48,083 nucleotides of DNA from a virus: positions 1 through 48,083 of IMG/VR virus record IMGVR_UViG_3300001593_000008, one strand, 5' to 3'. Position 1 is the stretch's first letter, and each line of letters begins with the position of its first letter. The position numbers were made by a program, and so were the translations under genes. The notes under the pieces are model-generated. The model was not told where the DNA came from, made no database searches, and saw only the letters and a program-made list of their open reading frames with translations. Shown here one piece after another: positions 4,035 to 23,027 of this stretch.

Positions 4035-7000
4035 TTATTTGACATTTATTGCGTTATCAACCGGAACGGGTAGACAACTGCAAGGCAACTGCAAAAGCGT
4101 TCTGGATGAATACGAGGGTAAGTTAATGATTCCGGGGAAAATATTTCCTAACGCATCTTTAAAGTTTCCTCCTAAACTAAGCGTTGCTGTCGGTACTGAG
4201 TACACGAATGAAAGATTACCGCCCTGCAAAGAACTGTGAAGATCATAGCTTAAATCAGATTGCCAACTTGCTAAGCTCCTGCTTGTTCCTGGATCGCTAC
4301 TGCTTGAAGTATAAAAGCTACCTAAATTTCCTGTGGGAGCCAAATAATAGTTGCTATCACAGGCAGAACAGAAAGTACTCAAGTCGTTATTGGGAGTTGC
4401 AAGCTCAACTGACGAGGCAGAACCGGTTATCCCGTGAATGTTGTTCTTATAAACTGTTCCTGTTATGGCATGGCTGGTAACTTCGGCATTGAAAAATTGG
4501 GAGTTTAAATTACCATAAAGATTATTATATTCGAAAGTGTTGGACGCTCCATGATTGAACATACCTGCGGATGCGTTGTATGCTAACGTATTGTACGATG
4601 CGGTTGTCTTTGTGGCGTAGTTGTCCCAATAGGTGCCGAATGACATATCCTGATAATTGTAAACGATTCCACTTCCGGCAGAACCGCCAAACAGGCATAG
4701 GTTATATGTTACATTCCTGCCATTCGGATAGCTTTGCGCAGACGGGTCCCAAGTATATATACCTCCTCCGTCAGATTTAACCATGCAATACAATTCAAAT
4801 AAGTTGTGAGATACATTTACGCTATCTCCATCAAAGGAAAGTCCGTTGTACCCTGAGTTAAGGAAGGTATTGTATTGATAAGTCGAAAACCCGTAGTTCC
4901 AAGTCCATGCGCTGTACCCGTTCCCTGATCCTGTTTGCCCCATGCCTGCCGTCATACCTGCACTATCCAGTAGACAGTATTGCATCACATTATAAGTAGA
5001 ACTGGACCCGGTGACAAAGGCGAAATTGTTATTCGCATATTTCATGGTGTCGTACCGAAAAGTAAAATGTCCAACGTTATTACCTGTCATCGCATTATTA
5101 CCGGCGTAATTAAACTTGCAGCTATCGAAATAGTCATTGCTCACATTGTTGCCGTAGATGCTGTATTGGTTGAAGTATTCGAAATCTACATTCGATACAG
5201 TGACATTGCTGGTTAAATAAATCCCTGTATCCAATACTGAGATCTTGACCACATGACCGGTTGGACCTGCCGATCCAAAGTACATTTGAAGGCTGTCTTT
5301 TGACCAGTTGTTATACCAACTTCCTATGCGTGTTGTCGTTAGTAACGTGTTCGGTTGGTTCATAAAAAAGAACCCATTCCCTCGTCCGCCTAATATGCTT
5401 GGCGAAGTGGCGAGTGTCAGCGTGGTGCTTCCTTGTGCGCTGATGTGAAGGGTATCCAAGTCTGAAAACTCAGGTCGTATGCAAACCGTTCCACCAGCAT
5501 AAGAGTAAGGCAAACTGGTTATAGCCGCCGATGTTAGCGTACTTGAAGTAAGTCCGGTATAGGTCAAATACCCGGTATCAGGATAGCGTCCCATCCCTGC
5601 CAACACGGCGTCTATAGTGACACAATTTAGGGTAGCCCTATCGTTGGGAATGTAGGTTTCATATATCCCATTCCCCATCGAAGTCCAAATTGTCGCTGTT
5701 ATATAACCCCTGTTTTTAGGCTTGCTTCCTGTTCCGTAAGAAGTGATGACTATTCCGCTGATCGGATAAGTGGTCGAATACCAAATATCATTGCATTTCA
5801 TGTATAGGGTATCACCCGAAGTCATCAAGCTAATTGCATGTGATTTGCTCGCACAAGGGGCTGCTAAGGTGCAGGCGTTCGCGTCATTTCCTGCCCCGGC
5901 TGTATCAATATAGAATCCTGTTTGTGTTGCTGATGGCACCGTGAAAGAAGCCGTTCCCTCTACGGTGTCGTATGAGTTATCCAGCATCGTATCAATCAGG
6001 GAATAGTTGCCAGACGGAACACCAACAACGGTGCCTGATTGCCCTGCTTGCACTCCCAAATTGATTGAAGTGCCTGCGGATTGAACGATATAACTATTAA
6101 CCGGCATGATCTTATGTGTCGCATCTGTGGTGCTTGTAGCAATGGACCAATTAAAACCACCGGCAAAAGGCGTGACGACGAGATTGCAGTGCAGGTTCGT
6201 ATTCGGTCGACTTGGCGCGTCTGTTCCATAAGAACATGGTGTTCCGGTCAAAAACCCTGTATTGCAACCGGGACAACTGGATATGATGCTAGAAGTGATG
6301 GAAAAAAAGTCCAATACCTTTGCAAAATACATCACATTATGCCCCATGTGATACGCGGCGGCGATCCGACTACCCAAACTGTCAGCCCAGATCATACCAT
6401 CGGGGATAACTTTACCCCTACCTGCTAAATACCTGTTCCCAGCCGTGTCTTCTGCGATAAAGTAAAGGCTATAGAGCGGACCGCCGAATAGTTTATTCCA
6501 AACGGCAGGAGAACCTTTAGCAATCTGCGTACATTGGCTCACGTATTGACCCATTCCCACGAACCAATTGTAAGGTTCGGGAGGACTGCCGTTATATGGC
6601 GTTGTTCCATTTGGTGTGGTATACAAGGGCCAATTGATTGTCGGCCCCGTTCCGCAAAAACCAACTTCATTCGATCCACCAGTGAACAGACCATTCGAGG
6701 TGTTCAAGATAGCATATCCCACATGCGCGGCAATCATCGTATCGATGGGAAAAATAGCAGATGGATAATAACTGTCAACTTGCGTAGGAGTGGTGATGGG
6801 ATTAAAAGCGTTACTATTCGTGTTTTCTCCGAGCCACCCATACTCTCCGAAGAATATAAGATGACCGGTTTGAGAAATGACATAGGCAAACCCGTTTCCT
6901 TTCGCTATAAAAGAGGCCAATTGGCCGCCCGGTAGTGTCACCTGCGTCCATGTGGTCGGAGTGGCGTTAACTCCGGTGTTGGCCGCGTAGTCATCAGTGC

Positions 7001-7649
7001 CGCCAATCACCCATAATGTTCCGTCCGTACAAATACAATGCAGGGAACTATTATAGGCTAGAATTTTATGCGGATGCCTCCCCCCAGGCATCGCCCCTAA
7101 TGAAGTCGGTTTGGCGCAAGATGATCCTCCAAGGTTCGTGAGATTCCCCCATGCCATTACTTGAGTGCAGGTATCGCTTTCAATGGACGCATAGAACGGA
7201 ACACCGCTCACCGGACCCCATCCCGCTGTCATAGCGGTAATGCCATAGAATGGATTCCCGTTGACATCCGTCAATATTTCATACATCGTTGATGGGCCAG
7301 TGGTAAGGCCATTGCCCAATTGGCAATTCGTTGGCAACCCACCCATAAAGACGCGTCCGCTGTCTGCTGACCACATGCCGCCGTCATGAAGTCCCGTACA
7401 AACACCGTCCATTGGTTCGTTGGGGATAGGAGTAACGACTTCCGTTGGTATCCCCTGTGCTCCGGTATTCCCGGTTCCAGCTATCGTATTATCCGTGGTG
7501 ACGGCATAGGCAATGCCCGGTGTATTGTAGTGCAGTTTAAAAAACATGGTGTACTCACCGGGAGATTCATAGTAACGAGCATTCGTGGAATACTGCCCCT
7601 GTGCCGCGAGGATCATCAACAATAAGGATATGGTCAGTAAATACCTCAA
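4035..7649 (-). CDS. Tailspike-like protein: RCC1-like propeller plus right-handed beta-helix
   Basis: The only start that keeps the signal peptide is a TTG at 7649-7647, whose bases overlap the upstream stop (TTGA). The signal peptide runs MRYLLTIS to AAQG|Q (Q-rule). Residues about 80-450 contain repeats like an RCC1 beta-propeller, for example DGTLWVIGG and SQTGHLIFFGEYG. From about residue 577 (YIDTAGAGND, then a GDTLYM strand) a pectate-lyase-like right-handed beta-helix with many Asn-rich rungs extends to about 1100. The C-terminus ends in a motif common in carbohydrate-active proteins (LPSYSSRTLL). It probably binds or depolymerises surface glycan. Catalytic residues cannot be assigned by eye. 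Confidence 0.75.
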   Translation of the reverse strand: MRYLLTISLLLMILAAQGQYSTNARYYESPGEYTMFFKLHYNTPGIAYAVTTDNTIAGTGNTGAQGIPTEVVTPIPNEPMDGVCTGLHDGGMWSADSGRVFMGGLPTNCQLGNGLTTGPSTMYEILTDVNGNPFYGITAMTAGWGPVSGVPFYASIESDTCTQVMAWGNLTNLGGSSCAKPTSLGAMPGGRHPHKILAYNSSLHCICTDGTLWVIGGTDDYAANTGVNATPTTWTQVTLPGGQLASFIAKGNGFAYVISQTGHLIFFGEYGWLGENTNSNAFNPITTPTQVDSYYPSAIFPIDTMIAAHVGYAILNTSNGLFTGGSNEVGFCGTGPTINWPLYTTPNGTTPYNGSPPEPYNWFVGMGQYVSQCTQIAKGSPAVWNKLFGGPLYSLYFIAEDTAGNRYLAGRGKVIPDGMIWADSLGSRIAAAYHMGHNVMYFAKVLDFFSITSSIISSCPGCNTGFLTGTPCSYGTDAPSRPNTNLHCNLVVTPFAGGFNWSIATSTTDATHKIMPVNSYIVQSAGTSINLGVQAGQSGTVVGVPSGNYSLIDTMLDNSYDTVEGTASFTVPSATQTGFYIDTAGAGNDANACTLAAPCASKSHAISLMTSGDTLYMKCNDIWYSTTYPISGIVITSYGTGSKPKNRGYITATIWTSMGNGIYETYIPNDRATLNCVTIDAVLAGMGRYPDTGYLTYTGLTSSTLTSAAITSLPYSYAGGTVCIRPEFSDLDTLHISAQGSTTLTLATSPSILGGRGNGFFFMNQPNTLLTTTRIGSWYNNWSKDSLQMYFGSAGPTGHVVKISVLDTGIYLTSNVTVSNVDFEYFNQYSIYGNNVSNDYFDSCKFNYAGNNAMTGNNVGHFTFRYDTMKYANNNFAFVTGSSSTYNVMQYCLLDSAGMTAGMGQTGSGNGYSAWTWNYGFSTYQYNTFLNSGYNGLSFDGDSVNVSHNLFELYCMVKSDGGGIYTWDPSAQSYPNGRNVTYNLCLFGGSAGSGIVYNYQDMSFGTYWDNYATKTTASYNTLAYNASAGMFNHGASNTFEYNNLYGNLNSQFFNAEVTSHAITGTVYKNNIHGITGSASSVELATPNNDLSTFCSACDSNYYLAPTGNLGSFYTSSSSDPGTSRSLASWQSDLSYDLHSSLQGGNLSFVYSVPTATLSLGGNFKDALGNIFPGIINLPSYSSRTLLQLPCSCLPVPVDNAINVK

Positions 7650-14460: not shown

Positions 14461-15462
14461 TCATTCAATTAGTGCCTGTTCTTTCAAGTTTGAGGCCATT
14501 TTTAGCCTCCGTGCGATGTGGGCGTACATCCCCTCATTTCCTGTTGCCGTCGGGCCATACGATGATGCACTCAATCCTTTGCCGGATGTTGGGCGCTTAT
14601 CCAGAAACTTATCATTTTCTAAATACCCATTGTTGTAATAGTCGTTAAGCATTTGGTGGCCGCTTCCTTCCCCTCCGTTATAGTCGGCCATTGCAAAAAA
14701 GTCTCTGGCTTTAGGCGATAAGGTTATTTTCCGTTGCTTGGCGTACGAATCTATGTCGTCGTAATGGTACTTCAATAGGGCGGCTTTGGCCTCCATTGCG
14801 CTTTGTACATCCTTGAAATTATTGGCATCGTGCTGTGGGTCTGGATCGGCTGCTGATGCTTTTGTCCCCCTGAAATTCTTGGCAAAATCGGATGGCAAGT
14901 AACCTTTTTTTACTAGGTCTGGAAAGCGTTCGGCGAATGTCTGGAATCCGAAGCTCTGGCCGCCGTTGATCGGAAAATCTTTATCGCCGTAATAATCTTG
15001 ATAACCCGGCTGTCCGGGGCTTCTGCCTTGGGTATCTTTACCGTTAGCATTTTTAAACAACCCACTAGCTCCTTCCTCCATAGCGGATGAATATAATAAA
15101 GCCGGGTCTATCCCATATTTTTTACCCATAGCCGTAGAGATATTTTTGATCGTGTCCGTTCCGGTACGTGGTATTTCGTTCGTTTTTAAAACCGTATCAC
15201 CTCTCCCTTCCAGTGGACCGTATTGTTGTTGCCAAGTTTGCAGGTATTTATTTCTGGATGCTTGATCGGCGTAATTTGGTTGTGGTATTAATCTTGGATT
15301 TGGAGTTGCAAGGGCGGATTTATTAATAGGTAAAGGGCCAACTGATGTAGGTGCCGGGGCGGTTATGGGGGCGACCGCAGTCGTCGGAAGGTTGGCTATA
15401 GGTGGGGTTACTATTCCACCGCCTCCGGGATCGCTAGGATCAATATCGTAGAAAAATCTCAT
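14461..15462 (-). CDS. Virion-associated lytic transglycosylase-like protein, 333 aa
   Basis: A Pro/Thr/Ala-rich disordered N-terminus (about 1-65) precedes a lysozyme-fold domain. Key features are KKYGIDPALLYSSAMEEG (candidate catalytic Glu at 129/130), a GQSFGFQTF segment like the conserved Gly-x-Phe-Gly motif, and FFAMADYNGGEGSG near 255. Such enzymes cut peptidoglycan locally during DNA entry. The gene overlaps the stop of the 2522 aa ejection protein by ATGA, which places it in the ejection module rather than the lysis cassette. The fold assignment is by motif reading only. Confidence 0.65.
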   Translation of the reverse strand: MRFFYDIDPSDPGGGGIVTPPIANLPTTAVAPITAPAPTSVGPLPINKSALATPNPRLIPQPNYADQASRNKYLQTWQQQYGPLEGRGDTVLKTNEIPRTGTDTIKNISTAMGKKYGIDPALLYSSAMEEGASGLFKNANGKDTQGRSPGQPGYQDYYGDKDFPINGGQSFGFQTFAERFPDLVKKGYLPSDFAKNFRGTKASAADPDPQHDANNFKDVQSAMEAKAALLKYHYDDIDSYAKQRKITLSPKARDFFAMADYNGGEGSGHQMLNDYYNNGYLENDKFLDKRPTSGKGLSASSYGPTATGNEGMYAHIARRLKMASNLKEQALIE

Positions 15463-18400
15463 CTGTGTTGCCTTTGGTGGTGGCCGGTTGGTTTCGGCGC
15501 TGGCGGTTCATTTGTTTCATAAGATTTGAAGCCGGTTCCTCCACTGATCGCTCCGTGCATAATGGATGTCAAAATCTCGTCTAATCTTTCTTTTTTGACC
15601 CCCTGCTGGTTGGCCTGATCATAAAATGTTTTAAACCCTTCCGCTACTGGGAGAGGCGCTTTACTTTCTATATATTCTGGCCATGTCATTTTGTGGCTAT
15701 ACGAATATAATGGCTTCTCGTCTGACCACGGGACTGTATTTCCGCTGTAATCGTGCCTAACTGAAGCCTCTAATACATCAGAGTAAAAAGGCGATAGCTT
15801 GCCTGATCCATATTTATAGGCGGCTTCCGCAAAAGAAGTTGGTTCATTCGGAGTTGGTGGTTTTTTCCCAGGTATGATCTCTTTTGCAGCATTCGAGCGA
15901 CCCGTAATAGCTATATGGAGTATTGTTTCGATAAAATGCATAGTAGACAACATTCCAGATGTAAAATCAAATGTAGTACCGCCTATTTTCATTTTAAGCC
16001 AATCTGGCTTAGTCGGATCGAACAAGTTTACTTTATCTTTTTGATCATTAGCAAAATAATTTTGAATGGCCGCATTTAATACCAATAGACCAGTGTACGA
16101 AGCTAATTCTGTTCCTACTCTTTTTGCCCATACTTTGGCGAATACACGATCTTCAACGGATACTGATTGCGGATTGGCCATAGCTTGGATGGCTGTTTTT
16201 GTGGCTTGTATTGGATTTCTTGTTAATTTACCCCACCTAGATACTTCCATACCTCCGGCAAATGTCACTTCATTTATCCAGTCTGGTATATTAAGATTAG
16301 AAGCTCCGGTAGCGTTATTTACCAATTTCGCTATAGCGATAGCCGAACCATCATCAGACTTTTCGTCTGCCGACAGAGAATTATAGTGAGAATCGAATAG
16401 TGCCTGTCTTAATATTTTAATGGCAGTAAATCCACGTTTCCCACTTTCTGAAAGTTTCCCAAAAATTGGAGCTATTATTTCAGCATCATTGTTAATTACA
16501 TCTGGATTGTTTTTTAACCCGGATCGTTGAGCTAAATTATAATTATCTGAACCCTTTAATTCTGATACAGATTTTTGGTAATATACATCACTCCCATAAG
16601 CCAATTTCCATGCTTTAAAAAAGGCAGATACTGTGTATTTTGCTCTTGGCAAATCCATTAATGTCATACCGGCATGTGTACCAACGAATATTCCACCATG
16701 ACCAAATACAGATTCTTCTCTAAACGCATTGACGAACTTTTTAAACGCCCTAATTGCAGGACTTTTTCCTTGCTCGTTCACGTATCGTTGGGTTGCTTGT
16801 TTGTTTTTCTCCAAATCATATTGATGTTTCCACATGGCGTCGGATATTGACTTTGTCTTTGGTGACACTATGACGTTGCTTGCCTGCTCAAAAGACAGGC
16901 CGGTATCGTTAGACACATGCGAAATTGCGTCTCTAAAATTAACCCCATTATTTAGATATTTATTTTTCATATAGTCGTATATCTCAGATGCCTCTTCTGG
17001 AGTGAATTTATTGCCTTTCTTATCAACAAATTTTGATGCCAACTCTTCCCTATCCCTATAATCTTTTTCTATTTTTTCATGTTCTGTTAGTGGTTTTTCT
17101 GCTTTTGAGGCAACCAATCCAGCCTTATCTTTAGCATCTTTTATTTGCTCTTTTAATTCTTTTTCTCGTTCAGATAATTCTCTCTTTTCTGGTGAATTTT
17201 TTGAATTACCTGTTTGAATATCCTCTAATTGTTTTTCAAGTCTGCGAATATTTTTTTCTTCCGGCGTTTCCTTAATAAACAAACCGGCTTTTTCTCCTAT
17301 CGAATGAAGTGCATCTACTAATTTATCTTTGCCAATATCTTCTTTCAGTTTGTCAACTGCATTTCTAATAAACTCAGATGCGTCCTCTCCAGCTTTAACT
17401 GCTTTTGCCGCTCCTTCCAATATAGATGCTGCTATATCTTTTAGTTTGGGTAAATCCACACCCATTTTTTGAACATCTCCCAATGGACCTTTTAAAAAAT
17501 CATCGAATTCAGAAGATGTTCGAAGTCTTTTAGCTATATTATTTAATTGTGAGGATAATTTAGCTTTCGGAACTTTAGCTGTTTTTAGACCAAATATTTC
17601 GTCGGTAGCTTTTTTTAAATCAGATTCGGCCCTGTCTAATTTAGATTGAAGACTTTTATTCGCAGTGGTTAATTCTATTACTTTAGATTTCTGGTCTTTA
17701 GTAAGTGGTTGGCCGGTTGATTTTTCAATCGCCGTTTTAACACTCGTAAAACTACCTGTATCTAATTCTATTTCTCCTTTCTGAGCAGAAAATGCCCTTG
17801 AAGACTGAGTTTTTAATGGTTGAATAGATTTCAAATAATCGTCTTGCGCTTTTACAGCGTCTTTATATTCTTGCGAATCAATTCCGTGATCATTTTCTGC
17901 CTTTTCTATTACCTGATGTAATGTATAGTTGTGGGCCTGCGCAATAGCTAACTTTTGATCCAAATCCAAATCCCTATCTGTCAAGGCAGAAATGGGATCA
18001 ATACCTTGTGCAATAGCCTCCTTACCAAAAGCAAATGATTCTTCCGGTGACCATCCTTTTCCTTTCTCATATTTCCTTAACCCCAATTTCTCTTGTACAC
18101 GCTGCGCTATACCCGTTGTTTTTTTACCCGCATCTTTACCTTTTTCTTCTGCGCTGGGCTGTCCGGGTTGTCTACCTTCTTCGGTAGATTGCTCTGATCC
18201 GTTTTGTCCGCCCACTCCTTCGCGAACGGCTGATTCGTCGCGAATGCCCATTTTTGTTGCTGACGACTGAGAAATGGCATTTTGTTTAGATTTTATTGAT
18301 TTTGAATTTAATACTACCACCTCGTCTTTTCTTGGCTCGTAAATATCAAAGCCTCTTTTTCTGGCATAATCATTAAGGCCTTTTCTATCATACCTAACAG

Positions 18401-21400
18401 CATCTTCAAAATTATCTATTTTCAGTAGGTCCGAATAATCTCCGTATTTATCTGGATTGGATTGAATGTCTTCGTAATTATGGCCATTTAATTCTGCTAC
18501 ATATTTTTTATAATCTTCCGGATCAAAAGTTTTTTTATTTAGAATTTTTGCGCCATTTTTTATTTCAAAATAGCTTTTTACTTTGCCATAATAAGGTTGA
18601 TTTAATTCATTCCTAGATACATAGAACCCTTTCCCATACTCTCCGCTATCCCTCGCCTGTAGCTTTGATTCGTCAATGTTCTTAACATCCTCATTTCCAT
18701 AGTGAACTAACGTATTATTCTGATCTTGAAGTTTTTGTTTGATGATCTCAGATGTATCCAATGTACGCGGCATATCCGACGAGATCAATTTCGGAATATT
18801 GCCGCCTGTTTCTTTTATCAGGTTGTCGCCTGCGTTACCCGCTTGCTTTTGACCCTTATCGGTTAACTGCGTGTCATCTTCACGGAACTCAGACATTTTG
18901 TTGTCTTTGGTTTCGCCGTGCCGGACTACTTTTATATCGTTGCCATTGTCGCCGGTGAATGTATGTACTTTCCCTTCTGCCTCTGGTTTCATATCCACGT
19001 ACCGTTGTGCAAACTCTTTTAGCTTGTCTCCTTTTATTTCGGAAACATCCGGTCTACCCATTTCTTCCCATACGTGTAAGGCTTTTATAACGGACGAATG
19101 GGTGACTATAGTTGTATTGTGTGGGTCTTCGTTTAATGATTTTTGGAATTCTGGAATGACGCGGCCAACTAAGTCGCTTAACTTTTCGCCCGTCTTACCG
19201 ACCGGCTCATTATTCAAAATCTCCTTCTCAATCTGATCCTTTGCCTCTGGCGTCTCATCCTTTCCTTTGTTGTCTCCGTAGTCTAGTGTACGGTATGCTG
19301 GATTAGATTCTATAGAAGGAGCGGTTCCCACCTGACCCGCGTCAGCCGCTCCTTCTGGTTTCTCTATTTCTTGCCCCCCTTTGGTTTGGGCATTTTCGGT
19401 GGTTTTGCCATTGGCTTCTGTTTTGGGTGATGAAATATTTTGATCTTTCTTGTCTTTAATGGTTTTGTCTAGGTCACCCTTGTTTTTTGCAAATTGTTCT
19501 GCAAAATCCTCTTCACCAACCTGACCTGATTTTTTACCATATACCTCTCCATACTTTCCCGATCCTTCTTTAACTTTACGCCCGTGTTCCGTTAACGGGT
19601 TCCCATCATTAAATAAATCTCTTGTTTCTTGTGGTAAATCAGCCCAAACAGAATGACCCAATTCGTGAATGGCGTTATGGTCATGACCGGCATAATTTTC
19701 CCCGTGGTCGGTTAGGTATATGCCTCTTATACTTTGGTCTCCATGTTGGATATTCCCGGCGGCTCCGGCTACATTTCCTTCTCTTGCCCCAGTCGAGTTG
19801 CCTATGAATTTTACACCATTTTGCTTTAAAACCTGCTTTGTCTCTGGGCTTAACTGACTAAATTGACGTTCCGCTCCAGGCTCTACCCAAAAACCCTCTT
19901 TATTGCTATACCCAGCAGCTTTAAAAGCTCCGTCAATATCCCCTTCATTATCTAACAAATGGTTTAAAATAATTCTTTGTCTACCTTTTGCATCTACATT
20001 ATTATTTGCAGGTTTGTTTTCATCTGGTTTCTGAATATGATCCAGTAAATCGTTATGGCTATCCTGTAAATAGTCGTTGGCCTTTTTAGGGTCTTTGAGT
20101 AGTTCAGGAATTTGCTTGTTTAGTTCGTCGATGTTTTTTTGAAGATGCGGTTTATAAACCGGATCGGCATAGGCCATCTGTCGGTTAATCTGGCTAATCT
20201 GATTTTGTACACTGAATAATGCAGCCTTTTGTTCTGGCTCCAATCCTTGCGGCATCCTAAGTTGTGCGTCTGTAAAATCTTCAAGCGTATTCTTTAAATG
20301 TTGGGCGTAGATGTTTCCGGGGTCTTTCTTTAACAATTTGTCAACTTGACCTGTCACACCCTGAATATTATTAGCAGCCAATTCTACCAAGTTATTCTGA
20401 ATATGCCCGTAAGTCTCTGCAATTTCTTTACCTTTTTGATAGTCTCCGACGGCATTCTTTAATGTTGGAACGGCTTCGAGCGCTTTACCGGCCAGCGCCA
20501 TAACGGCCGTTTGCCTTGGATTGAAGGCTCCTGATATATCAGTAGATAACCCATTCTTCCGACTGATGCCGCGTTGTAAGTCTTCTTTTGCCTGTAACCC
20601 GTTTGTCACCTGATTGACCACCGCATTACCCAAGTTTGTTCCTGTTAACATCGCTTGCAGGTGGGCGATATCTCCCGGCTCCCTTATGGCCTTAGACGCT
20701 AAGTTTAGCAGCATCTTTTTAGGGTTATTTGCCTCCCCGTTCACCACCGCTTCCGCCACATCATTTTCAAACCCTTTGGCAAACTTTATATTAGGAAGGA
20801 GGGTCATAAACGCCGCCCCTATGAGTGGTTTTGCTGCTAGATAGGTATTATAAGCCGCGCCCGTTAGCCCGGCCGATTCAGCCTCCTTTCTAACCGTAGG
20901 CAGGCTTTCGGCCAGTGCTGTAGCAAACGTCAAGGCTTTTGCCGTTCCGGCTTCCTCTGCCAATCCCGGAATGATATACGGGGCAAATCCGCCAATGGTT
21001 GAGGCAATATCATTCGCCCATCCAGCTAATCCGTGCTTGCGTTGCTCCACTTGCTTCATTGCTACAGGAGAAATGGCTGGTAAGTTTGAACTTAGGAATT
21101 GCTGCGTGTTATTGTTTAATCCTTGTATCCATGCACCATACCCGGCAGGCGCAACACCTAACTTAGCGGGTAGACTGGCAAGCGTCTCACCTATATTTGC
21201 AAATCCCTTTCCGGCTGAGCCAAACGCTGTTTTTAGATAGTCCAGCACATTCGTATTCCCTTCAATCGCTTTCCGGTCGTATTCGTCCTGTTTTATTTGT
21301 GCGTTAGTGTCATCTGGGAAAGACCTTTGACGAATCTCGTCTATTAATCCGATACCTTGTTGCCGCTTCTGAAATTCGTTCAGATAGTTTTTTACCTCCG

Positions 21401-23027
21401 GTTGGTTGATGTAGTTCTGTGAAAAGTTTACTGATTTGGTATAAGCATTCCACCGCTGCAAGTTCTGCGCTCCTTTCTGTGCGAGACGGTCGGCGTCATC
21501 TTGATTTACGGGTTGCCCTGTTCTCTTAGACCGATCCGTCAATAAATCGGCCTGATGCTGCAATTCCTGTTGTTGGCCTTCAAACTCATTCTTGTTCTTC
21601 TCGAAGTTGTTCAGGACATTTAAATGGCCGTTTAGGATATCCGGATCGACATTAGAGGGTAACGGTTGATTAAGGTTATATTTATCCTCTACTGTTTTTT
21701 GCAGGACATTAGCCATACCCTGACTTCCGGCGTCAATAGACTGCTTGTAAGGTTCCCCGTATTTATTAAGGGTCGTATTGATATCGTTGGCTAGTTCTGG
21801 ATGTTCGGCTAATACACTCCTTAGCTGGCCGCCCTGCTTATCCGATTCGTCTACCATTGATTTAACCGGCGTGGGTAAAGATGCGTCTGTTGCTTTTTGT
21901 CCTTGTGCTGTAGGACTACCGGCAGAAGGACCATTTTGAGTTCCTAACTTATATCCATTAGTGGCAAACCAATCGGCATCTTTATCGTTTTTAAAGGCAA
22001 TGTATTCCTTGTTTTTTATGGCATATTGGTATGCTTCTTTATCTCCTAACTGCTTTAGTGACCCGTCCGGTTGCTGGACTATCGTAGGATATGCTAAGTT
22101 ATCCGATGAAGCCATTCTATGAGTAGAAACACTCCCATCGTCATTTTTAATAACGGGAGATGTAGACGGATTAAGATATCGCTGAACAAAATTCTTATCC
22201 TTATTTTTGTCTAGAATATCGTCTACGAATTTCGAGTCATGCAAGTTTGATATCTCTGGATATTGTTGCCTTACAGATTTTTCCCTGTCATCGGCGACTT
22301 GCGTCCGATTCTTTGTACCGTAAACAGTCGCTTGCGGCAAAGTCTGTTCGGTAGGTACGTCAGGGGTTTGAACACCGGGGAATTTGTAAGAGTTGCTATC
22401 CCAATCGTATTTAGGGGTAATAAATTGTTGGCCTCCGGTTGCCGCCTGATAAGGACGCGGGACTTGCAGTATCTTCCCTTGCATACTATGCGGATCGAAA
22501 TTCTGTAGTGGTTGCTTGGTATAATAGTTTGACCAATTCCCTTTAGCATCCTGTTCTGGGTAAAGCAGAACGCCATTTTGATCAGTGGCTATCTTACTAA
22601 CAAAGTCTTTCTTTTGAGCCTGATAATCCGGATCGTTCAGGTAAAGCCCGTTTTTTTCTCCTTCCAGATCAGGTTGGAAAGTACCATTGAATTGTAATGG
22701 TTGGCTAAGATTCTGCGTAGTCTGCCGGATTCCTTTATCTACCGGCGTAGGTGGCGGCGCAGTATTGATTTCGATGAACCGTTTAACTGCTGATTTGATA
22801 TTGCTGTCCGGCTCACCCGCCTGTTGCATTTTTACGATAATCTGGGCTATCTTTTGCTTGTCATCGTCTTTTAGGCCGTAGTTGGGCGTCGGCGTTTTGG
22901 CAGGCGGTTGCTGGCCCGGCCCTCCGCTTGGTGGTTGAGGCGGTGGTGCTTGGTTGGGAATGGGTGACGGGGCAGGCGGTTCCTGCTCGTCAACGTCCGG
23001 TTCTAATATGTCTGTTGTTCCGGCCAT
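15459..23027 (-). CDS. Giant polyvalent ejection protein, 2522 aa: zincin, permuted histidine phosphatase, ART-like
   Basis: The Pro-rich N-terminus (1-50) is followed at about 290-358 by a module common in phage virion proteins (YPTIVQQPDGS, EAYQYAI, FKNDKDADWFA). Hydrophobic helices occur at about 610-750. A zincin metallopeptidase-like domain has H1121-E-L-G-H1125 and a candidate third ligand in EEDFAE (about 1172-1177). Residues 1245-1437 read as a histidine phosphatase in permuted order: YGDNKGK at 1250 and VTH1310, then RH1370GET and SSDMPR1421T. Residues 1440-1560 look ADP-ribosyltransferase-like (H1442, GKGFY 1465-1469, VVVLNSKSI). A long helical region and membrane-like segments near the C-terminus follow. 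It is probably packaged in the head and injected, acting on host targets and as a conduit. Confidence 0.75.
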   Translation of the reverse strand: MAGTTDILEPDVDEQEPPAPSPIPNQAPPPQPPSGGPGQQPPAKTPTPNYGLKDDDKQKIAQIIVKMQQAGEPDSNIKSAVKRFIEINTAPPPTPVDKGIRQTTQNLSQPLQFNGTFQPDLEGEKNGLYLNDPDYQAQKKDFVSKIATDQNGVLLYPEQDAKGNWSNYYTKQPLQNFDPHSMQGKILQVPRPYQAATGGQQFITPKYDWDSNSYKFPGVQTPDVPTEQTLPQATVYGTKNRTQVADDREKSVRQQYPEISNLHDSKFVDDILDKNKDKNFVQRYLNPSTSPVIKNDDGSVSTHRMASSDNLAYPTIVQQPDGSLKQLGDKEAYQYAIKNKEYIAFKNDKDADWFATNGYKLGTQNGPSAGSPTAQGQKATDASLPTPVKSMVDESDKQGGQLRSVLAEHPELANDINTTLNKYGEPYKQSIDAGSQGMANVLQKTVEDKYNLNQPLPSNVDPDILNGHLNVLNNFEKNKNEFEGQQQELQHQADLLTDRSKRTGQPVNQDDADRLAQKGAQNLQRWNAYTKSVNFSQNYINQPEVKNYLNEFQKRQQGIGLIDEIRQRSFPDDTNAQIKQDEYDRKAIEGNTNVLDYLKTAFGSAGKGFANIGETLASLPAKLGVAPAGYGAWIQGLNNNTQQFLSSNLPAISPVAMKQVEQRKHGLAGWANDIASTIGGFAPYIIPGLAEEAGTAKALTFATALAESLPTVRKEAESAGLTGAAYNTYLAAKPLIGAAFMTLLPNIKFAKGFENDVAEAVVNGEANNPKKMLLNLASKAIREPGDIAHLQAMLTGTNLGNAVVNQVTNGLQAKEDLQRGISRKNGLSTDISGAFNPRQTAVMALAGKALEAVPTLKNAVGDYQKGKEIAETYGHIQNNLVELAANNIQGVTGQVDKLLKKDPGNIYAQHLKNTLEDFTDAQLRMPQGLEPEQKAALFSVQNQISQINRQMAYADPVYKPHLQKNIDELNKQIPELLKDPKKANDYLQDSHNDLLDHIQKPDENKPANNNVDAKGRQRIILNHLLDNEGDIDGAFKAAGYSNKEGFWVEPGAERQFSQLSPETKQVLKQNGVKFIGNSTGAREGNVAGAAGNIQHGDQSIRGIYLTDHGENYAGHDHNAIHELGHSVWADLPQETRDLFNDGNPLTEHGRKVKEGSGKYGEVYGKKSGQVGEEDFAEQFAKNKGDLDKTIKDKKDQNISSPKTEANGKTTENAQTKGGQEIEKPEGAADAGQVGTAPSIESNPAYRTLDYGDNKGKDETPEAKDQIEKEILNNEPVGKTGEKLSDLVGRVIPEFQKSLNEDPHNTTIVTHSSVIKALHVWEEMGRPDVSEIKGDKLKEFAQRYVDMKPEAEGKVHTFTGDNGNDIKVVRHGETKDNKMSEFREDDTQLTDKGQKQAGNAGDNLIKETGGNIPKLISSDMPRTLDTSEIIKQKLQDQNNTLVHYGNEDVKNIDESKLQARDSGEYGKGFYVSRNELNQPYYGKVKSYFEIKNGAKILNKKTFDPEDYKKYVAELNGHNYEDIQSNPDKYGDYSDLLKIDNFEDAVRYDRKGLNDYARKRGFDIYEPRKDEVVVLNSKSIKSKQNAISQSSATKMGIRDESAVREGVGGQNGSEQSTEEGRQPGQPSAEEKGKDAGKKTTGIAQRVQEKLGLRKYEKGKGWSPEESFAFGKEAIAQGIDPISALTDRDLDLDQKLAIAQAHNYTLHQVIEKAENDHGIDSQEYKDAVKAQDDYLKSIQPLKTQSSRAFSAQKGEIELDTGSFTSVKTAIEKSTGQPLTKDQKSKVIELTTANKSLQSKLDRAESDLKKATDEIFGLKTAKVPKAKLSSQLNNIAKRLRTSSEFDDFLKGPLGDVQKMGVDLPKLKDIAASILEGAAKAVKAGEDASEFIRNAVDKLKEDIGKDKLVDALHSIGEKAGLFIKETPEEKNIRRLEKQLEDIQTGNSKNSPEKRELSEREKELKEQIKDAKDKAGLVASKAEKPLTEHEKIEKDYRDREELASKFVDKKGNKFTPEEASEIYDYMKNKYLNNGVNFRDAISHVSNDTGLSFEQASNVIVSPKTKSISDAMWKHQYDLEKNKQATQRYVNEQGKSPAIRAFKKFVNAFREESVFGHGGIFVGTHAGMTLMDLPRAKYTVSAFFKAWKLAYGSDVYYQKSVSELKGSDNYNLAQRSGLKNNPDVINNDAEIIAPIFGKLSESGKRGFTAIKILRQALFDSHYNSLSADEKSDDGSAIAIAKLVNNATGASNLNIPDWINEVTFAGGMEVSRWGKLTRNPIQATKTAIQAMANPQSVSVEDRVFAKVWAKRVGTELASYTGLLVLNAAIQNYFANDQKDKVNLFDPTKPDWLKMKIGGTTFDFTSGMLSTMHFIETILHIAITGRSNAAKEIIPGKKPPTPNEPTSFAEAAYKYGSGKLSPFYSDVLEASVRHDYSGNTVPWSDEKPLYSYSHKMTWPEYIESKAPLPVAEGFKTFYDQANQQGVKKERLDEILTSIMHGAISGGTGFKSYETNEPPAPKPTGHHQRQHR

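What the first reader, a model, noticed from the sequence alone, without database searches (positions are those of the whole stretch)
18739..19295. Apparent circularly permuted histidine phosphatase domain inside the giant ejection protein
In histidine phosphatases the RHG motif comes first, and the second catalytic His (VtH) comes about 150 residues later. Here the C-terminal half reads first: YGDNKGK at residue 1250, TGEKLSDLVGR with R1289, and TTIVTH1310. The N-terminal half follows: VVRH1370GET, FREDD, LTDKGQKQA, and SSDMPR1421T. All expected pocket residues are present but in swapped order within about 190 residues. A circular permutation is the simplest reading. I am not aware of this being described in phage virion proteins.
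Basis: partly seen in the sequence, partly recalled or inferred. Interest (0 to 1): 0.85.

Follow-up and report, generated by a model that had tools for sequence, protein, structure and literature searches.

The report
Circularly permuted histidine phosphatase in phages
A giant phage protein, probably injected into the host, carries a phosphatase domain whose two halves are in swapped order, and the same rearranged domain recurs in at least 17 viral contigs, so it is a real and apparently undescribed rewiring of a common enzyme fold.

Summary
Residues ~1238-1435 of the 2522-aa protein (ORF 15459-23027, minus strand) match the branch-1 histidine phosphatase profile PF00300 in two non-overlapping pieces in swapped order; put back in canonical order they give one continuous match. 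The same swapped order occurs in 16 further viral contigs (31-81% identical where aligned), including a 313-aa protein that is little more than this domain. Nine canonical-order phage relatives exist. Against their profile, all 16 permuted sequences tested match best when reopened just upstream of the RHG strand, where the old ends were joined. AlphaFold predicts one compact domain (pLDDT 94, pTM 0.90). Most hosts are giant polyvalent-type phage proteins; nine relatives have a crAss-like RNA polymerase motif nearby. Both pocket Arg and both His are invariant, but the usual proton-donor Glu is Thr/Ala throughout, so "all pocket residues present" needs correction. I found no description of a circularly permuted histidine phosphatase in the open papers searched. 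Best reading: an injected, probably active phosphohydrolase module. Activity, substrate and delivery are inferred. No permutation-aware superposition on a solved structure could be made here.

The parts
15459..23027 (-). host ORF, 2522-aa giant multi-domain (polyvalent-like) protein
18723..19316 (-). circularly permuted histidine phosphatase domain, aa ~1238-1435
18951..19310 (-). canonical C-terminal half, placed first (aa ~1240-1359): RTLDYGDNKGK, TGEK..R1289, TIVTH1310, KVHTF strand
   Evidence: PF00300 positions 80-155; canonical phage profile 73-161
18936..18956 (-). TGDNGND turn (aa 1358-1364): junction of the old C- and N-termini, predicted strand-turn-strand
18723..18935 (-). canonical N-terminal half, placed second (aa ~1365-1435): VVRH1370GET, LTDKGQ, SSDMPR1421T, helix
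   Evidence: PF00300 positions 3-68; canonical phage profile 1-68
18918..18923 (-). R1369-H1370, first pocket Arg and expected nucleophile His; invariant in 17/17 permuted rows
18765..18767 (-). R1421, second pocket Arg; invariant in 17/17
19098..19100 (-). H1310, second pocket His; invariant in 17/17
19287..19289 (-). T1247 at the position of the usual general-acid Glu (PhoE Glu83); Thr/Ala in all permuted rows, Thr in all canonical phage relatives

Best explanation
Residues ~1238-1435 are a true circular permutation of the branch-1 histidine phosphatase (phosphoglycerate mutase-like) domain. Shown by sequence: the canonical C-terminal half (GE..R helix, TIVTH strand, last strand) now comes first and runs through a short turn (TGDNGND) straight into the canonical first strand with RHGET; the new ends lie near the loop before the edge strand. 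Shown by homology: the permuted form is a module of its own, conserved in many phages and placed at different positions in different proteins; in the tree it is one clade next to canonical-order phage relatives, so a single origin is likely. Inferred: it folds in cis and works as a covalent-histidine phosphohydrolase (H1370 takes the phosphoryl group; R1369, R1421 and H1310 hold it). Inferred: the giant protein is packaged in the virion and ejected with the DNA, so the enzyme acts in the host early in infection, most likely on a phosphorylated small molecule or protein used in defence or regulation. Loss of the usual proton-donor Glu points to a substrate with a good leaving group (such as phosphohistidine, acyl phosphate or pyrophosphate) or to a substitute acid; the invariant Asp1375 is a candidate.
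For: Two swapped PF00300 pieces that tile the profile, and a better single match after re-ordering. 17 distinct viral contigs with the same swapped order, beside unrelated neighbouring modules. Nearly stand-alone L017, 313 aa, domain at aa ~22-205. Sixteen permuted sequences rotated through every start against a canonical phage profile: the best start lies 0-28 residues upstream of the RHG strand in all, and the best single-piece score rises in all. No second N-half or C-half in any permuted ORF. AlphaFold on 13 rows: pLDDT 94, pTM 0.90, strand-turn-strand at the junction. Order-bound Foldseek aligns only ~67 columns to phosphoglycerate mutases, 1.6-1.9 A, probability 0.80-0.97, as expected for a permuted fold. 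Tree: permuted rows one clade (81/82) next to canonical phage rows. Pocket R, H, R, H invariant in 17/17. dN 0.10 against dS 1.6 between window and L002. Context: Kinase-PolyVal (PF18762) in the same protein in L018, SLT transglycosylase in the same protein in L013.
Against: No coordinates were available, so the predicted fold was not superposed on a histidine phosphatase with a permutation-aware method; whole-chain Foldseek matches are weak. In 4 of 13 sequences the two natural-order pieces together score slightly more than the single rotated match. The proton-donor Glu is missing, so activity may be altered or lost. Support for a single origin is moderate and few canonical relatives were sampled. 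Packaging and ejection of the window protein were not tested.
Confidence: 0.93

Rival explanations
1. Two decayed canonical phosphatase domains stand side by side: the first lost its N-terminal half, the second its C-terminal half, and the remnants do not form one domain.
For: Duplication followed by trimming is the usual route to a circular permutation, so such remnants are possible (general knowledge).
Against: No trace of the missing halves in any of the ORFs. Pocket residues from both halves are invariant down to 31% identity. One compact predicted domain. The junction is only a short turn in nearly all members, and a nearly stand-alone copy exists.
Confidence: 0.03
2. The fold is a permuted histidine phosphatase, but the domain is catalytically dead and serves as a binding or structural module of the injected protein.
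For: The general-acid Glu is replaced by Thr/Ala in all permuted and all canonical phage relatives.
Against: The nucleophile His, the second His and both Arg are invariant in 17/17, as are Asp and Asn after RHGET. Purifying selection in the closest pair.
Confidence: 0.2
3. The two halves work in trans or by domain swapping between copies of the giant protein, not in cis.
For: L048 carries ~180 residues between the halves, so a tight turn is not strictly needed.
Against: In the other members the halves are joined by a short turn between two predicted strands, and the single-chain prediction is confident.
Confidence: 0.03

Closest known systems
Histidine phosphatase superfamily, branch 1 (Pfam PF00300; PhoE, CobC, GpmB, dPGM, SixA)
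   Same: Sequence profile over the whole domain, RHG motif, second Arg, second His, GE..R helix.
   Different: Circularly permuted; general-acid Glu replaced by Thr/Ala; Asp at the place that is Trp in GpmB and others.
Canonical-order histidine phosphatase domains in phage multi-domain proteins L015/L019, L016/L020 and L021-L027
   Same: Nearest relatives in the tree; share the Glu-to-Thr change, the TW[DN]xG motif, the W-E stretch after the second His and the final strand.
   Different: Normal order of the halves.
Polyvalent proteins of phages and conjugative elements (Iyer et al. 2017, PMC5512222)
   Same: Very long proteins with exchangeable enzyme modules; Kinase-PolyVal in the same protein in L018, GNAT next to the domain in L002.
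   Different: That paper's main text mentions neither phosphatases nor permutation; this would be a new module of the kind.
Crassvirus virion cargo proteins (PMC10172136)
   Same: Giant RNA-polymerase-related proteins carried in the virion; nine relatives have a DFD[I/V]D motif in the stretch held; the paper proposes ejection with partial unfolding and refolding.
   Different: No phosphatase mentioned in that paper; the motif was not found in the window contig.
Circularly permuted DNA adenine methylases of jumbo phages (PMC7824862)
   Same: Precedent for circular permutation of an enzyme in phage proteins.
   Different: Unrelated fold and function.

Membership tests
Histidine phosphatase superfamily branch 1 (PF00300) | Profile match above the curated cut-off | tested here: met
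   57.7 bits for the whole protein against a cut-off of 21.7; all 13 members of A6 match
Histidine phosphatase superfamily branch 1 (PF00300) | RHG motif with nucleophile His, second Arg, second His | tested here: met
   R1369, H1370, R1421, H1310; invariant in 17/17
Histidine phosphatase superfamily branch 1 (PF00300) | General-acid Glu as in PhoE Glu83 (common, not required by the Pfam definition) | tested here: not met
   Thr1247; Thr/Ala in all permuted and canonical phage relatives, Glu in five outgroups
Histidine phosphatase superfamily branch 1 (PF00300) | Canonical chain order (RHG half first) | tested here: not met
   Order swapped; this is the permutation itself, so the claim is a permuted variant and not an ordinary member
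Histidine phosphatase superfamily branch 1 (PF00300) | Phosphoglycerate mutase-like alpha/beta fold | tested here: inconclusive
   Confident single domain; ~67 columns superpose on phosphoglycerate mutases at 1.6-1.9 A; no permutation-aware whole-fold superposition possible
Histidine phosphatase superfamily branch 1 (PF00300) | Phosphatase or mutase activity through a phosphohistidine intermediate | not testable with these tools
   needs an enzyme assay
Circular permutation | Both halves present once, non-overlapping, in swapped order; re-ordering gives one continuous match | tested here: met
Circular permutation | A canonical-order homologue exists | tested here: met
   L019, L021-L027
Polyvalent proteins | Very large phage protein with several exchangeable effector domains | tested here: met
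   2522 aa; different neighbouring modules in window, L002, L003; Kinase-PolyVal in relative L018. In the window protein itself only the phosphatase passes a Pfam cut-off
Polyvalent proteins | Carried in the virion and ejected into the host | not testable with these tools
   inferred from context and relatives only

The most novel reading that the evidence does not exclude
A phage-specific family of circularly permuted histidine phosphatases with a changed catalytic acid, carried in the virion and injected to remove a phosphorylated host signal; the permutation moves the chain ends to the sheet edge and so eases unfolding through the tail and refolding in the host.
Probability: 0.2. Interest if true: 0.85.

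Novelty: new variant of a known kind. Interest (0 to 1): 0.68.

Why it matters
Histidine phosphatases are among the most widespread phosphohydrolases, and I found no naturally permuted form described. A conserved natural permutant with canonical sisters is a direct test case for how an enzyme survives such a change. It adds a new enzyme module to polyvalent, probably injected phage proteins, including those of crAss-like phages, and so a new candidate counter-defence activity. It also shows that order-bound annotation leaves such domains half-recognised: most tools label only the RHG half.

Tried and rejected
Assembly or frame artefact: rejected, 17 contigs with an open frame (one needs TGA=Trp). 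Chance motifs: rejected (shuffles at most 5.1 bits). Two remnants of tandem copies: rejected. Macrodomain, suggested by the first Foldseek rows: rejected, E above 0.1 and rmsd 7-14 A. Permuted copies elsewhere: two genome-contig scans gave no confirmed relative (narrow peptide patterns, so a weak negative); tblastn of annotated phages and plasmids gave partial matches only, mostly the RHG half, none covering 80% of a permuted query. The one longer match (Acinetobacter H10) proved canonical. Yasminevirus hit in BFVD: rmsd 11 A, not followed. L013 with TAG=Q failed; TGA=Trp reads through. Literature: no paper held 'circularly permuted' or 'circular permutation' together with 'histidine phosphatase', nor 'crAss-like' with 'histidine phosphatase'; open-licence papers only.

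Full report
OBSERVATION. The ORF 15459-23027 (minus strand) encodes 2522 aa. All motifs and residue numbers in the finding are correct. Pfam PF00300 matches the whole protein at 1.6e-15 in two stretches. Taken apart, aa ~1243-1364 match profile positions 80-155 and aa 1365-1437 match positions 3-68: the canonical second half comes first.

RE-ORDERING TEST. Joined in canonical order, the two halves give one continuous match over positions 3-155 with 73.5 bits, against 64.4 bits in two pieces in natural order. Against solved structures, a profile of three natural-order sequences finds PhoE (1ebb, 1h2e) in two weak pieces, 27.5 bits in all; the re-ordered profile aligns in one stretch, 35.1 bits.

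RELATIVES. Six viral scans with permuted queries gave 16 further contigs with the same swapped order: L002, L003, L004, L008-L014, L017, L018, L034, L037, L044, L048. The 12 aligned ones are 31-81% identical to the window domain. The domain sits in the middle (window, L002-L004, L009, L014, L044, L048), near the start (L011, L018, L034, L037) or near the end (L008, L010, L012) of giant proteins, or makes up most of a 313-aa protein (L017). Window, L002 and L003 share it while the modules beside it differ: a weak DUF3990-like match in the window, GNAT in L002. L048 has ~180 residues inserted between the two halves. No permuted ORF holds a second copy of either half.

CANONICAL SISTERS AND ORIGIN. 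L015/L019, L016/L020 and L021-L027 hold a related domain in normal order inside phage multi-domain proteins. Against their profile, sixteen permuted sequences were rotated through every start. In all of them the best start lies 0-28 residues upstream of the RHG strand, in most within 14; the score is flat over that stretch because the last residues of the C-half hardly match the profile. The rotated best match runs from profile position 1-3 to 157-183 of 185. The best single-piece score rises in every case (window: 39.5 to 71.2 bits). Compared with both natural-order pieces together, it rises in 9 of 13 and falls slightly in 4, since the edge-strand region is short or missing at the joint; adding flanks changes some of these. 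In the tree, permuted rows form one clade (support 81/82) next to the canonical phage rows. Both groups share the Glu-to-Thr/Ala change that five outgroups lack. A single permutation event in a phage lineage is likely, not proven.

FOLD. AlphaFold with 13 sequences gives pLDDT 94 and pTM 0.90, all five models above pLDDT 92, with a strand at 115-119, a turn, and a strand at 125-130 (domain numbering), at the proposed junction of the old ends. Foldseek keeps chain order; it aligns about 67 columns to phosphoglycerate mutases at 1.6-1.9 A, probability up to 0.97. A permuted fold should give this, but it is not a whole-fold superposition.

ACTIVE SITE. R1369, H1370, R1421 and H1310 are invariant in 17 of 17 permuted rows. 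The Glu that donates a proton in PhoE (numbering from general knowledge) is Thr1247 here, and Thr or Ala in every permuted and canonical phage relative. Asp1375 (RHGETKDN) is invariant in permuted rows, where two outgroups have Trp. The domain is under purifying selection between the window and L002 (dN 0.10, dS 1.6); most other pairs are saturated.

CONTEXT AND FUNCTION. L018 carries Kinase-PolyVal in the same protein and L013 an SLT transglycosylase, both usual in proteins acting at or after entry (general knowledge). Nine relatives have a DFD[I/V]D motif in the stretch held, like the DxDxD motif of crAss-like RNA polymerases (PMC10136315). Crassvirus RNA-polymerase proteins are virion cargo thought to be ejected with partial unfolding (PMC10172136). 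From this I infer an injected phosphohydrolase. Its target is unknown; a phosphorylated signal or protein of the host is the best guess. That the permutation helps unfolding during ejection is a conjecture without a test.

KNOWN OR NEW. Searches for permuted histidine phosphatases found no paper; the polyvalent-protein paper does not mention phosphatases. Only open-licence papers were searched. Permuted methylases in jumbo phages are a precedent for permutation in phage enzymes (PMC7824862). I rate it a new variant of a known kind. The 0.93 confidence is for the permutation; activity (about 0.75) and delivery by the virion (about 0.7) are less certain.

Noticed in passing
L013:7212-9776: This relative reads through only if TGA is Trp (four TGA codons in the stretch translated), with SLT transglycosylase and the permuted domain in one 855-aa frame; the phage probably uses a recoded TGA.
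   Followed up: partly
L048:2739-8486: About 180 residues are inserted between the two halves of the permuted domain, at the junction of the old ends.
   Followed up: partly
L018:7800-16262: One 2821-aa frame holds the permuted phosphatase, Kinase-PolyVal and an exonuclease-like stretch (phrog_298): a kinase and a phosphatase in one polypeptide.
   Followed up: no
window 18228-18740 (minus): Directly after the phosphatase there is a stretch with a weak DUF3990-like match (E 0.2), possibly an ADP-ribosyltransferase-like module.
   Followed up: partly
window 19650-19667 (minus): HELGHS motif (aa 1121-1126), a zincin metallopeptidase-like motif as in other polyvalent proteins; not seen at this place in L002 and L003.
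   Followed up: no
window 4035-7649 (minus): 1204-aa protein with a sub-threshold RCC1-like repeat match (E 2.7e-7).
   Followed up: no
L008, L009, L010, L011, L012, L014, L018, L034, L044: DFD[I/V]D motif of a crAss-like RNA polymerase type in the same stretch as the permuted domain; not found in the window contig.
   Followed up: partly
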